Shown here: one piece after another, positions 8,034 through 46,833 of the stretch
Numbering within the stretch: the stretch's first letter is position 1
Layout of the letters: every line of letters starts with the position of its first letter
DNA from: Deltaproteobacteria bacterium
Lineage (GTDB): Bacteria; SAR324; JACQKK01
DNA: 64,000 nt
Direction of reading: 5' to 3'
Assembly (NCBI GenBank): GCA_029858505.1
Contig: JAOUEW010000002.1
Span: 292,851 to 356,850 of the forward strand
Program-made: the position numbers and the translations under genes
The notes under the pieces: model-generated
What the model was told of the DNA's origin: nothing
Databases searched by the model: none
Seen by the model: the letters and a program-made list of their open reading frames with translations, nothing else

Positions 8034-9116
8034 ATGATTATAACAAGTACGTTAGATGGCTGGAAAAAAAACTGGAGAAATGAGTTAGAAATAGCAATAA
8101 CTTATATTGCGTTATGGTTAATGTTTGTGCCATTTAAAGGGTGGAAAGTAGCGTCTTTTATGTTGCTGGTTGTAATAACAGGCGTTTCAACAATGGCATT
8201 GGTGATGGATTTGTTTATTTGTTTGTTTGTAAAAAGAAGAATACCACGAAATAGATACGTAGCCTTATTCTTGTTGTGCGTGTTTTATTTTATTTTGTAT
8301 ATATATCAACCGCATGTGTTCATGGTGTTATTGCTTGGGTTTGTCGGTATTTCTTTGGTTATTGGTGTGGCGAATATAGTTTTGGCGAATATTTTAAAAA
8401 AGCCAATGGCTATCATCAGGATACCGATCAACAATCCAATATCTTGGATGCTGTATCGGGTTCAAATTATTGACAAAGAATATTTTATTTTTACAAAAGG
8501 CTTATTTAAAAGTTTTTATAACCAAGAAATTGGAGTGGTTGTTCAAGACGAGGAGGACAGAGACAATATAAAAAATATGTTAATAATAATTGTAGATTAT
8601 ATTGGGAAAAGCGAGCATAATATTTTACAAAACCAAACCATGAACTGGGGGATATGGTTAATAAAGTTCATAGAACATGATGACGGCGTGTTGCATATTT
8701 ATGAATATGATGAAAATTCTAAAAACGAGTATTCGGAGGGAGTTGAGAGATCTGTTGTGTATTGGGCGGATCAAAATTGCACGTGTATTCAATATGGTTC
8801 CGAATATGTGGATCCCATGTTTCATCACACGGTAGCGGTTACTTCGGGTGTGATGGAAGGGCAACCCATAGAAGCCTTTCGGCAGAAAATGGATGGTGAT
8901 TTTTCTGGATGGTTTATCATTACAAAAGATTACATTACGTCTTCGGATCATGAATATATAGATATTCAGAATTTTAAGACTTATCACATTAACCATGTCG
9001 TAGATATACAGCCAAGGCTTGTCAAATATTTATCCTTACAACCTGGTTTTAGGGTGAATCTGATCGGCGAAGAAGATGTCGTGGTATTTGATCCAAGATT
9101 ATTGGAGGATGAATAG
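8034..9116 (+). CDS. AT-rich island membrane protein with Imm33/DUF2185-like C-terminus
   Basis: A 360-residue protein whose DNA is strikingly AT-rich (many AAT, ATA, TTT and AAA codons) against GC-rich neighbours, a sign of horizontal gain. Four hydrophobic segments occupy about 20-36, 40-66, 74-94 and 95-117; the rest (about 125-360) is soluble. Residues about 290-357 (FSGWFIITKDY, then YHINHVVDIQPRLVKYLSLQPGFRV) resemble the DUF2185/Imm33 immunity fold, where a DSGW motif and a P-x-I-x-x-Y-L segment are typical. The start has GGGGGGTGA eight bases upstream. No toxin gene is adjacent, so it would be an orphan immunity protein or an unrelated membrane protein. The family match is by eye and tentative. 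Confidence 0.6.
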   Translation: MIITSTLDGWKKNWRNELEIAITYIALWLMFVPFKGWKVASFMLLVVITGVSTMALVMDLFICLFVKRRIPRNRYVALFLLCVFYFILYIYQPHVFMVLLLGFVGISLVIGVANIVLANILKKPMAIIRIPINNPISWMLYRVQIIDKEYFIFTKGLFKSFYNQEIGVVVQDEEDRDNIKNMLIIIVDYIGKSEHNILQNQTMNWGIWLIKFIEHDDGVLHIYEYDENSKNEYSEGVERSVVYWADQNCTCIQYGSEYVDPMFHHTVAVTSGVMEGQPIEAFRQKMDGDFSGWFIITKDYITSSDHEYIDIQNFKTYHINHVVDIQPRLVKYLSLQPGFRVNLIGEEDVVVFDPRLLEDE

Positions 9117-43868: not shown

Positions 43869-44306
43869 TCACACGGCCAGCAGATCATCCCAGGGAGTGC
43901 TGGGGTCCACCAGCTTTTCCACCGAAATGCCCATCAGCAGCCGTTGAATTTCCCGGTCAACAAACGTAAGGGGAGCCACGATGTTGCAGGATTCGGTAAG
44001 TTTGCAGCGACGGTTGGGGTTTCGCAGGCAGTCTACAAAGGCCAGGTCGCCGTCTACCATGGCAATGAACTCCCCCAGGTGAATTTGACTCAGGTCTCCG
44101 GCCAGCCGATAGCCGCCCTGAGAGCCTTGCTCAGATCGGATGACCCCTTTGGCGTTGAGGGTTCTCATTACGTTGGCGACCGGGTCGAAGGGCGTGCCGA
44201 ACTTTTGGCAAATTTCCCGCACGGTGGTCAATTCAGCGGGGGGCTTGCCCCGCATGTATTTAATGGCCACCAGGCCGTATTCGACTTGACGGTTGATTTT
44301 TAGCAC
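43869..44306 (-). CDS. Rrf2-family regulator with three cysteines
   Basis: A 145-residue Rrf2 protein. The winged helix (about 4-60) reads KINRQVEYGLVAIKYM, typical of the family. Cysteines at 93, 101 and 107 (C-x7-C-x5-C) could ligate an iron-sulfur cluster as in IscR or NsrR, and Cys33 is extra. GTG 44306 is preferred over the longer frame because it begins at the conserved start. It is divergent from the lipoprotein gene at 44511; the two share a 204-base control region. No isc genes are adjacent. Confidence 0.85.
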   Translation of the reverse strand: MLKINRQVEYGLVAIKYMRGKPPAELTTVREICQKFGTPFDPVANVMRTLNAKGVIRSEQGSQGGYRLAGDLSQIHLGEFIAMVDGDLAFVDCLRNPNRRCKLTESCNIVAPLTFVDREIQRLLMGISVEKLVDPSTPWDDLLAV

Positions 44307-44510: not shown

Positions 44511-44888
44511 ATGATTCATGAACGGGTACTATGGGGGCTTTTCGTTTCCCTGGGATTGGGGCTTGCGGGGTGTTCCCAAAACCCAACCAACGAACCCACG
44601 CCGGGAGAATGGCCCGCCACGCGCTATGTGGAGCCAGGGCAGTTTACTTACCAAATGGAGGAAGGAATGCCCCTTTCGGCCACGGGAACGGGCTGCGGAG
44701 AAACCCGCGAAAAAGCCCTGGATCACGCCGAAGCCGCCGCATTGTATAACCTGAGGAGCCTGACTGGGCAAAAACGCTATCGGGTCCGCTATCATTTTTT
44801 GAGAGACATCCCAGACCCACGCCGGGTTTGCTTGGAAATGGAGGCCATCATGGAGAAATGTCAGATTCCGCCCTGCCCCGTTCGTTGA
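44511..44888 (+). CDS. Predicted lipoprotein
   Basis: A 125-residue protein with a signal peptide (RVLWGLFVSLGLG) and a lipobox LAGC, so it should be a lipoprotein. The mature part contains a GCGETREKALDHAEAAALYNLRSLTGQKRYRVRY segment with additional cysteines (54 and the C-terminal region). I recognise no family. GAGGG lies eight bases before ATG 44511. It is followed by two membrane genes, probably in one operon. Confidence 0.75.
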   Translation: MIHERVLWGLFVSLGLGLAGCSQNPTNEPTPGEWPATRYVEPGQFTYQMEEGMPLSATGTGCGETREKALDHAEAAALYNLRSLTGQKRYRVRYHFLRDIPDPRRVCLEMEAIMEKCQIPPCPVR

Positions 44889-44977
44889 CCCCCGGGCCTT
44901 CCATGGTTACACTACATTTGATCATCGATCCTGCCGGACGGCAGGTCCTTCATCCTTCTTGAGAGAAAAACCGCGTA

Positions 44978-45871
44978 ATGGGACGGGGAAAACGAAAAAA
45001 GAAAGCGCATCGTTCTTTGCTTCAAAAGCGCGTTCAAGCCCCTTCTGGTTCTCCTCCTTCGGCGGCACCTGCCCCCTATCCACCCAGGCCATCCACCCCC
45101 CAGCCGGCCCAGAATGGGGCCCCCGCGTCCTATTCACGGGATGCGGGCACGCCGGGGTGGGAATTGTTTCTGATGGCTGTGGTACGGGTGACCTGGGATT
45201 TGATCCGAGGATTGCTGGAATCGGTGATCGTGGCCCTGATCCGTTTAGCGGAGGTGTTGTGGCAGATCTTGTCTTGGGTGGCCTGGCAGCTCAACTTGTT
45301 ATGGATGCGCTTTGACCTGTGGTGGGCACCGCGTTGGCCCAGGATTTGGGTGACGCTTCGCCCCACGGTTTCCGTGCTGGCGGTGATGCACTTGGTGGGC
45401 GTGGCCTGGCTGCCCGGGGGTGAGAACAAACTGTTCAATTGGTCCGTTCGGGACAAACTGGGGTACACCACTCTCTATCCGATGATTGATACTTTTGGCT
45501 TTTGGGTGAGGCCCCAGGAGGATATTCAACTCCGCTATCAAATTTACACCCAAGAAGGCACCACCCATAAGGGATTGTTTCCAGACCCGGCCATTGGCTT
45601 GCAGGTGAGATACGACCGTTGGGCCTTGGCCACCCAATACACGGCGGGGGCCAGTGCCTTAAACCACGCCGCCATGGGCCGGTTTTTGGCCAGCCAAACC
45701 CCATCCACTCCGTTTAAAGTGGCCCTGTCCTCGGTGACATGGCGTTGGCATTGGCGGCCGGTGGCCTTTCCCCCTTCGTTTGCCTGGGAGGGTGAGCAGC
45801 CCCAAGAACGCTCGCTGGGGGCCTACAACGGGCTGACCAAACAGTGGGAGTCGGGAGACAAAACGCCATGA
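44978..45871 (+). CDS. Membrane partner of HTTM protein, DUF5819-like
   Basis: A 297-residue protein. The first 55 residues are Lys/Arg- and Pro-rich. Residues about 60-115 are hydrophobic with tryptophans and another helix follows (about 125-145). The rest is a soluble beta-rich domain containing FGFWVRPQEDIQLRYQIYTQEG, which resembles the partner proteins (DUF5819 type) found beside HTTM genes. Its stop overlaps the HTTM start (ATGA). Function unknown; probable accessory subunit or substrate-presenting protein. Confidence 0.6.
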   Translation: MGRGKRKKKAHRSLLQKRVQAPSGSPPSAAPAPYPPRPSTPQPAQNGAPASYSRDAGTPGWELFLMAVVRVTWDLIRGLLESVIVALIRLAEVLWQILSWVAWQLNLLWMRFDLWWAPRWPRIWVTLRPTVSVLAVMHLVGVAWLPGGENKLFNWSVRDKLGYTTLYPMIDTFGFWVRPQEDIQLRYQIYTQEGTTHKGLFPDPAIGLQVRYDRWALATQYTAGASALNHAAMGRFLASQTPSTPFKVALSSVTWRWHWRPVAFPPSFAWEGEQPQERSLGAYNGLTKQWESGDKTP

Positions 45872-46833
45872 GAAGTTTTGAAATGTGGATGGACCATGCC
45901 GGACGGCAATGGAGTCAGTTTTGGTTTCGCCGCCCCTGCTTGGCCAACTTGGCCTTTTTACGGATGGCCACGGGGTTGATGTGGTTTTACGCCCTGTCGG
46001 CCTATACCTTGGACCTATCGGCCCATTTGGGGTCCCATGGGTGGGCGAACCCTGAGGATTTGGCGGGGTCGAGCCCCTTTGTGTGGTCCTTCAGCGCGTT
46101 TCACTGGGTGAACAGTCTGTGGTGGTGGTGGTTTGTTCATTTGTCCGCGTTGCTCACGGCTTCGGCTTTGATTTTGGGAATCCATCCCACGATTTCCGGA
46201 TTGTTGAGCCTGTTTTTCCATTTGTCTTACATGCACCGCAACCCGGTGGTGGTGCTGGAAATGGACCACCTCATCACGTTTGCTTTGGTGTACACCACCC
46301 TGGCCCCCACGGCCCGCCAGTTTGCCATCGATCCCCTCTTCCGTACCGGGCAGTTCCGCTATAGCTGGGAGGATGTCAACCCGATTCAGGATTCGGAATG
46401 GGGAAGCCTGATCTTGAGATTAATGCAGATTCATCTCTGTCTGCTGTATGTTCACGCGGCCCTGGCGAAAATGGATCCCAGTTGGTTGTCGGGTGCTTCC
46501 TTAACCCATCCCCGGCTGGAGCAACGGGGTTTTCCCCTGGGGTGGGAATGGATGACGGCCTCGCCGGAATGGACGGTACTATTTTCTTATGGCTTGGTCA
46601 TTTGGATGCTGCTCTATCCGGTCTTGATCTGGGTGCCCCGGCTGCGTACCCCTCTGGTGACTTTTTCCATTTTGTTGCACGTGGTGGTGGGGGTGGTTTG
46701 GGGGCAGTTGGCTTTTAATCTGATGATGGCCGCCCTGAACACCATGTTCTTCCCCCCCGAGTGGGTGGTCCGGGCCAAAAATGAGGTTCGAGAAGCCTTG
46801 GGGATGCCCTGGTTTCCCTCAGGGCACCCCTAG
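45868..46833 (+). CDS. HTTM-family membrane protein (vitamin-K-dependent gamma-carboxylase-like)
   Basis: A 321-residue protein with several membrane helices. Segments that match HTTM proteins are FLRMATGLMWFYALSAY, HRNPVVVLEMDHLITFALVYTTLAPTARQFAID, and RLMQIHLCLLYVHAALAKMDPSWLSGASL. HTTM proteins are relatives of eukaryotic gamma-glutamyl carboxylase, but most bacterial members have no shown activity. ATG 45868 overlaps the stop of the previous gene by four bases. Several His and Lys residues in these segments make enzyme activity possible. Whether vitamin K (menaquinone) is used is an open question. Confidence 0.8.
   Translation: MRSFEMWMDHAGRQWSQFWFRRPCLANLAFLRMATGLMWFYALSAYTLDLSAHLGSHGWANPEDLAGSSPFVWSFSAFHWVNSLWWWWFVHLSALLTASALILGIHPTISGLLSLFFHLSYMHRNPVVVLEMDHLITFALVYTTLAPTARQFAIDPLFRTGQFRYSWEDVNPIQDSEWGSLILRLMQIHLCLLYVHAALAKMDPSWLSGASLTHPRLEQRGFPLGWEWMTASPEWTVLFSYGLVIWMLLYPVLIWVPRLRTPLVTFSILLHVVVGVVWGQLAFNLMMAALNTMFFPPEWVVRAKNEVREALGMPWFPSGHP

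What the first reader, a model, noticed from the sequence alone, without database searches (positions are those of the whole stretch)
44511..46833. Lipoprotein, HTTM-partner and HTTM operon in a menaquinone-making organism
HTTM proteins are relatives of vitamin-K-dependent gamma-glutamyl carboxylase. Here the HTTM gene overlaps a gene for a membrane partner with a basic, proline-rich N-terminus and a soluble beta-rich domain like DUF5819, and a lipoprotein lies just upstream. The same window encodes MenD and MenH, so menaquinone is probably available. The module could be a membrane modification system of unknown substrate.
Basis: inference. Interest (0 to 1): 0.6.

Follow-up and report, generated by a model that had tools for sequence, protein, structure and literature searches.

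The report
SAR324 membrane module with carboxylase-like fold
A real, conserved pair of membrane-protein genes in a marine SAR324 bacterium shares its fold with the human vitamin-K carboxylase but lacks its active site, and half of its closest relatives have even lost the one lysine found in every other relative we sampled, so it is very unlikely to be a carboxylase.

Summary
The three genes are real and placed as stated. The partner (297 aa) and HTTM (321 aa) genes overlap by 4 bp and are translationally coupled in all eight SAR324 genomes that carry them, at one locus (pyrD-IMPase-Rrf2 upstream). All eight belong to one family; the pair is absent from the rest of the phylum. The HTTM model matches human GGCX (top 11 PDB hits), so shared ancestry with the vitamin-K carboxylase is supported. 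Carboxylase chemistry is not: the Asn-Asn-His Glu pocket is absent in all eight. The catalytic Lys218 equivalent is Lys in the window protein (K201) but Arg, Ser, Leu or Arg in four orthologues, whereas it is Lys in 52 of 52 other HTTMs examined. By profile, the HTTM is closest to HTTMs paired with DUF5819; these and SdpA-SdpB pairs sit beside secreted precursors such as SDP toxins. The partner is a new family with no detectable similarity to DUF5819, SdpA or the GGCX lumenal domain. The lipoprotein is a separate, order-wide SAR324 gene found in 27 genomes without the pair, so it is not a dedicated substrate. Best reading: a divergent two-subunit HTTM module that processes or chaperones a secreted protein at the membrane, not a gamma-carboxylase. 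Substrate unknown.

The parts
44511..44888 (+). Lipoprotein (125 aa), family A3; invariant Cys62 and Cys107 and an 'FNLRSLTG..RY' core. An order-wide SAR324 lipoprotein; neighbour of the module, association uncertain
44978..45871 (+). Partner (297 aa): basic Pro-rich N-terminus, membrane helix 119-144, C-terminal alpha/beta domain (about 181-292) predicted beta-beta-alpha-alpha-beta-beta-beta; new family with no Pfam or PDB match
45868..46833 (+). HTTM multi-pass membrane protein (321 aa), GGCX-fold superfamily, non-carboxylase branch
45868..45871 (+). 4-bp ATGA overlap of partner stop and HTTM start (translational coupling), conserved in all 8 orthologous loci (1 bp in one)
46468..46470 (+). 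Codon for Lys201 of the HTTM protein, equivalent to catalytic Lys218 of human GGCX; Arg, Ser, Leu or Arg in four of the seven other orthologues
46240..46266 (+). TM4 motif N125-P126...D133, invariant in the SAR324 clade; stands where GGCX has the N158-N159-H160 Glu pocket
43869..44303 (-). Divergent Rrf2-family regulator bounding the locus (conserved neighbour, not shown to be part of the module)

Best explanation
The partner and HTTM proteins most likely form a two-subunit inner-membrane complex in one SAR324 family. The HTTM helical bundle provides a membrane cavity of the GGCX type, and the single-pass partner puts a soluble alpha/beta domain outside the membrane to bind or gate a secreted client, much as the lumenal domain does in GGCX and as SdpA/DUF5819 proteins presumably do for their HTTMs. 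The complex processes, modifies or chaperones a secreted or periplasmic protein. It does not gamma-carboxylate glutamate. Because the superfamily lysine is lost in half of the orthologues, either the conserved function does not need lysine-based chemistry or the catalytic step has decayed in several lineages. Shown: genes, coupling, conservation, GGCX-like fold, residue pattern, kinship with DUF5819-type HTTMs. Inferred: complex formation, orientation, a secreted client, and its processing.
For: Pair and order conserved in 8 of 10 family genomes; of the other two, one (G001) has its contig end next to the lipoprotein, one (G007) lacks the triad at the intact locus. Stop/start overlap in 8 of 8. 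HTTM model hits GGCX with TM-score up to 0.64 over the query. hhalign: HTTM closest to the DUF5819-partnered HTTMs (E 1e-21), then VKGC (6e-14), HTTM-DCC1 fusions (6e-11), SdpB (2e-8). In Streptomyces, Macrococcus, Rhodococcus and others the order is secreted small protein - membrane-anchored partner - HTTM. SdpA and SdpB are required to process SdpC into the SDP toxin (PMC6818787) and HTTM genes occur in linaridin clusters (PMC9927463). The sister of the SAR324 clade, Hymenobacter L086, has the same three-gene arrangement (95/91 support). Glu-pocket NNH absent in 8/8, K218 lost in 4/8 against Lys in 24 of 24 and 28 of 28 other HTTMs.
Against: No client or precursor peptide is identified. The only conserved upstream secreted protein found in relatives (gene A) is absent from the window's genome. 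The partner has no demonstrable homology to SdpA or DUF5819. Partner model confidence is moderate (pLDDT 70, pTM 0.39) and a complex was not modelled. Deep branching of the HTTM tree is unresolved (30/25 support).
Confidence: 0.5

Rival explanations
1. It is a SdpAB-like system that matures a secreted antimicrobial peptide whose precursor gene is unlinked or unrecognised.
For: HTTM closest by profile to the partnered HTTMs that sit beside small secreted proteins; same gene order with a secreted product upstream in other phyla.
Against: No precursor with a hydrophobic toxin core and no SdpI-like immunity gene seen at any of the loci examined; chromosomal, syntenic, family-wide conservation looks like housekeeping, not a mobile toxin locus; universal Lys lost in half of the orthologues.
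Confidence: 0.2
2. The HTTM is a lysine-dependent enzyme in the window organism and some relatives, and a decayed pseudoenzyme in the lineages that lost the lysine.
For: Window protein keeps K201; loss is scattered on the tree (R, S, L, R in L019, L020, L022, L025), which fits several independent losses.
Against: The genes lacking Lys remain intact, syntenic and coupled to the partner, with 36 invariant columns shared across all eight.
Confidence: 0.15
3. The upstream lipoprotein is the substrate, modified or sorted by the pair.
For: Within the SAR324 family the lipoprotein lies directly upstream of the pair in 7 of 8 loci (3.8 kb away in one) and is missing together with the pair in G007.
Against: Lipoprotein homologues occur in 27 f2 genomes without the pair, beside hemL/lon or rpoD-type genes, so the protein works without the module there.
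Confidence: 0.1
4. It is a vitamin-K-dependent gamma-glutamyl carboxylase using the organism's menaquinone.
For: GGCX fold; menD in the window; Lys201 at the K218 position of the window protein.
Against: N158-N159-H160 pocket absent in all eight; K218 equivalent lost in four of eight. Published data: K218A abolishes GGCX catalysis and H160 coordinates the Glu substrate (PMC12589487). True VKGC homologues with NNH and Lys do exist in the neighbouring SAR324 family (L080: 153 bits to human GGCX) and form a separate 100/100 clade. Menaquinone genes are common and say nothing specific.
Confidence: 0.04

Closest known systems
DUF5819 (PF19136) + HTTM gene pairs (Streptomyces, Macrococcus, Virgibacillus, Bacillus)
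   Same: HTTM closest by profile (E 1e-21); anchored partner gene directly before or overlapping the HTTM gene; often a secreted protein gene upstream.
   Different: Partner not detectably homologous; no DCC1 gene seen beside the pair; the GG-D motif of TM4 is reduced to x-x-D; the Lys is not conserved.
SdpA-SdpB of the SdpABC sporulation-delaying-protein system
   Same: HTTM subunit plus membrane-anchored partner with overlapping genes in several cases.
   Different: No SdpC-like toxin precursor or SdpI found at the locus; partner not similar to SdpA; HTTM similarity weaker (E 2e-8).
Vitamin-K-dependent gamma-glutamyl carboxylase (GGCX and bacterial VKGC)
   Same: Fold of the membrane domain; position of Lys201 in the window protein.
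   Different: No NNH pocket; lysine lost in half; no fused lumenal domain.
HTTM-DCC1 fusion proteins and linaridin-cluster HTTM proteins
   Same: Non-carboxylase members of the HTTM superfamily; linaridin-cluster HTTM genes are assumed to take part in peptide maturation (PMC9927463).
   Different: Fused to a thiol-disulfide oxidoreductase domain, or embedded in RiPP clusters; neither is seen here.

Membership tests
HTTM superfamily (Pfam PF05090) | Score above the curated Pfam cut-off | tested here: met
   31.7 bits against 27.7; orthologues in 5 further genomes of the family above the cut-off, one below and one unmatched
HTTM superfamily (Pfam PF05090) | GGCX-type membrane-domain fold | tested here: met
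   GGCX structures are the only hits at E<=0.001 (11 of them), TMq 0.57-0.64; model pLDDT 68
Vitamin-K-dependent gamma-carboxylase | Asn-Asn-His Glu pocket (N158, N159, H160) | tested here: not met
   LEM in the window protein and no His at position 160 in any of the 8 orthologues; roles from PMC12589487
Vitamin-K-dependent gamma-carboxylase | Catalytic base Lys218 | tested here: inconclusive
   Present in the window protein (K201) and 3 orthologues; R, S, L, R in four
Vitamin-K-dependent gamma-carboxylase | C-terminal lumenal substrate-binding domain (fused, or split as the partner) | tested here: not met
   HTTM ends after the membrane domain; partner domain shows no profile similarity to the VKGC C-terminal domain (score 9.5; 56 of 60 shuffles as high)
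DUF5819 (partner) | Detectable match to DUF5819 sequences or profile | tested here: not met
   No Pfam hit in 8 members; hhalign score 12.4, 27 of 60 shuffles as high
SdpABC system | SdpA-type partner | tested here: not met
   hhalign score 14.6, 9 of 60 shuffles as high
SdpABC system | SdpC-like secreted precursor and SdpI-like immunity protein nearby | tested here: not met
   ORFs conserved across the 9 loci show no such protein; the rest of the genome was not searched for them
SdpABC / DUF5819-HTTM kind | HTTM gene coupled to a gene for a membrane-anchored partner with an extracytoplasmic domain | tested here: met
   1-4 bp overlap in 8 of 8; one clear membrane helix followed by an alpha/beta domain. 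Topology is inferred
Two-subunit complex | Physical interaction of partner and HTTM | not testable with these tools
   Needs co-purification or complex modelling

The most novel reading that the evidence does not exclude
A branch of the HTTM/GGCX superfamily has moved to chemistry, or a non-enzymatic substrate-handling role, that does not need the otherwise invariant lysine, together with a partner family of independent origin. It would show that the GGCX fold can serve as a general membrane machine for secreted proteins.
Probability: 0.25. Interest if true: 0.55.

Novelty: new variant of a known kind. Interest (0 to 1): 0.35.

Why it matters
Bacterial HTTM proteins are numerous and are often annotated by analogy with the vitamin-K carboxylase; plasmid records here carry 'peptidyl-glutamic acid carboxylation'. 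This case shows by residues and phylogeny that the annotation does not follow from the fold. It separates carboxylase-type (NNH + Lys) from other HTTM clades with a simple two-site test, and offers a natural set of Lys and non-Lys orthologues for finding out what the lysine does outside carboxylases.

Tried and rejected
Carboxylase reading: rejected on the NNH and Lys pattern. DUF5819/SdpA/GGCX-lumenal homology of the partner: an apparent topological likeness seen by eye was tested with hhalign against shuffled columns and failed; Foldseek of the partner model gave only weak hits. Lipoprotein as dedicated substrate: weakened by its order-wide distribution. Gene A, a conserved secreted Cys protein upstream of the lipoprotein in 7 of 9 loci and found in 8 family genomes, was considered as client but is absent from the window's genome and from G008, both of which keep the pair. 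Gene C downstream is a Vut_1/YhhQ transporter, unrelated. A first genome-contig scan with the window HTTM found nothing; a three-sequence alignment named the clade as SAR324. Tree placement of the clade relative to the SdpB and VKGC groups is unresolved. Two of 30 loci (L140, L145) caught the wrong reading frame (a soluble neighbour), so 28 were counted.

Full report
OBSERVATION. The three genes are present at the stated coordinates: lipoprotein 44511-44888, partner 44978-45871, HTTM 45868-46833. The HTTM protein passes the Pfam cut-off. The partner and the lipoprotein have no Pfam family, alone or with seven orthologues each. Named relatives are SAR324 cluster bacteria.

CONSERVATION. In whole-genome searches the HTTM and the partner are found together in 8 of the 10 genomes of the window's family and nowhere else in the 52 genomes of the phylum. 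The more distant HTTM matches in the neighbouring family are other kinds of HTTM. Gene order is pyrD - IMPase - Rrf2 - lipoprotein - partner - HTTM - (tRNAs - nusG), as far as each contig reaches. The partner stop and HTTM start overlap by 4 bp in seven genomes and 1 bp in one. Of the two genomes without the pair, G001 has a contig end about 260 bp from its lipoprotein gene and G007 has the locus without lipoprotein, partner and HTTM. The partner-HTTM pair is therefore a real unit.

THE LIPOPROTEIN. Its profile finds homologues in 9 of 10 genomes of the window's family and 27 genomes of the neighbouring family, which lack the pair. There it sits beside hemL/lon or sigma-factor and histidine-kinase genes. 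Conserved features are two cysteines and an FNLR-type core. It is a SAR324 lipoprotein in its own right. Within the window's family it is linked to the pair, but it cannot be a substrate that depends on it everywhere.

THE HTTM PROTEIN. AlphaFold2 with the eight orthologues gave pLDDT 68, and Foldseek against the PDB returned GGCX structures as the only matches at E<=0.001. In GGCX, K218 is the base that deprotonates vitamin K hydroquinone (K218A abolishes catalysis), H160 and N159 coordinate the Glu side chain and N158 the peptide backbone (PMC12589487). Human GGCX was tied to a true bacterial VKGC from the neighbouring SAR324 family (L080, 153 bits) and all groups were aligned. VKGCs keep Asn-His (NNH, LNH or INH) and Lys. 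The eight SAR324 proteins have no NNH; they have an invariant N-P...D instead. Their K218 position reads K, R, S, K, L, K, K, R. In 24 other HTTMs of several kinds and 28 further HTTMs of another phylum it is always K. The difference is 4 of 8 against 52 of 52 (Fisher p about 1e-4, a figure that ignores relatedness). The aligned stretch between Tyr194 and Trp206 has no gaps in the eight, so misalignment is unlikely.

KINSHIP. hhalign puts the SAR324 HTTM nearest the DUF5819-partnered HTTMs. The maximum-likelihood tree makes the SAR324 clade monophyletic (100/99) with a Hymenobacter plasmid HTTM as sister (95/91); deeper branching is weak. DUF5819- and SdpA-type partners precede or overlap HTTM genes next to secreted proteins in several phyla. 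SdpA and SdpB are needed to process SdpC to the SDP toxin (PMC6818787), and linaridin clusters carry an HTTM gene thought to act in maturation (PMC9927463).

THE PARTNER. Its model has a membrane helix and an alpha/beta domain, with no close PDB fold. It resembles DUF5819 and the GGCX lumenal domain in position and order of elements to the eye, but profile comparison with shuffled controls gives no support. It is best called a new partner family.

MECHANISM. The most likely reading is a two-subunit inner-membrane machine for a secreted client, with the partner as the outer client-binding subunit and the HTTM as the membrane cavity. Genes, coupling, fold, residues and kinship are shown; complex, orientation, client and reaction are inferred. 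Gamma-carboxylation is very unlikely as the shared function of the clade, and unlikely in the window protein too because the Glu pocket is missing.

VERDICT. New variant of a known kind (partnered, non-carboxylase HTTM). Moderate interest, resting mainly on repeated loss of the superfamily lysine in an otherwise intact, syntenic gene pair.

Noticed in passing
L080:1455-2903(-), L081:4578-5951(+), L026:6651-8147(-), L079:3-1019(-): Genomes of the neighbouring SAR324 family encode true VKGC-type proteins with the Asn-His Glu-pocket motif and the catalytic Lys, three of them next to a DCC1-like thiol-oxidoreductase gene.
   Followed up: partly
G031:C2:789574-790334: An HTTM copy in another SAR324 genome is interrupted by seven stop codons, apparently a decayed gene.
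   Followed up: no
L019:7482-8132(+), L020:13279-13857(-), L023:6706-7326(-) and others: Gene A: a conserved secreted protein with invariant cysteines just upstream of the lipoprotein in 7 of 9 loci of the family, found in 8 family genomes, no Pfam family, absent from the window's genome.
   Followed up: partly
L100:971-3025 and L101:716-3046: In two Streptomyces plasmids a gene annotated 'ice-binding family protein' lies directly upstream of a DUF5819-HTTM pair, suggesting large secreted clients for such pairs.
   Followed up: no
L140, L145: Beside two HTTM genes of another phylum an open frame encodes a soluble domain with a DMFAPNP motif like DUF5819's FAPDP, perhaps another split partner.
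   Followed up: no
window 8034-9116 (+): Protein with an Imm33-like domain (PF24719, 75 bits), usually tied to toxin immunity.
   Followed up: no
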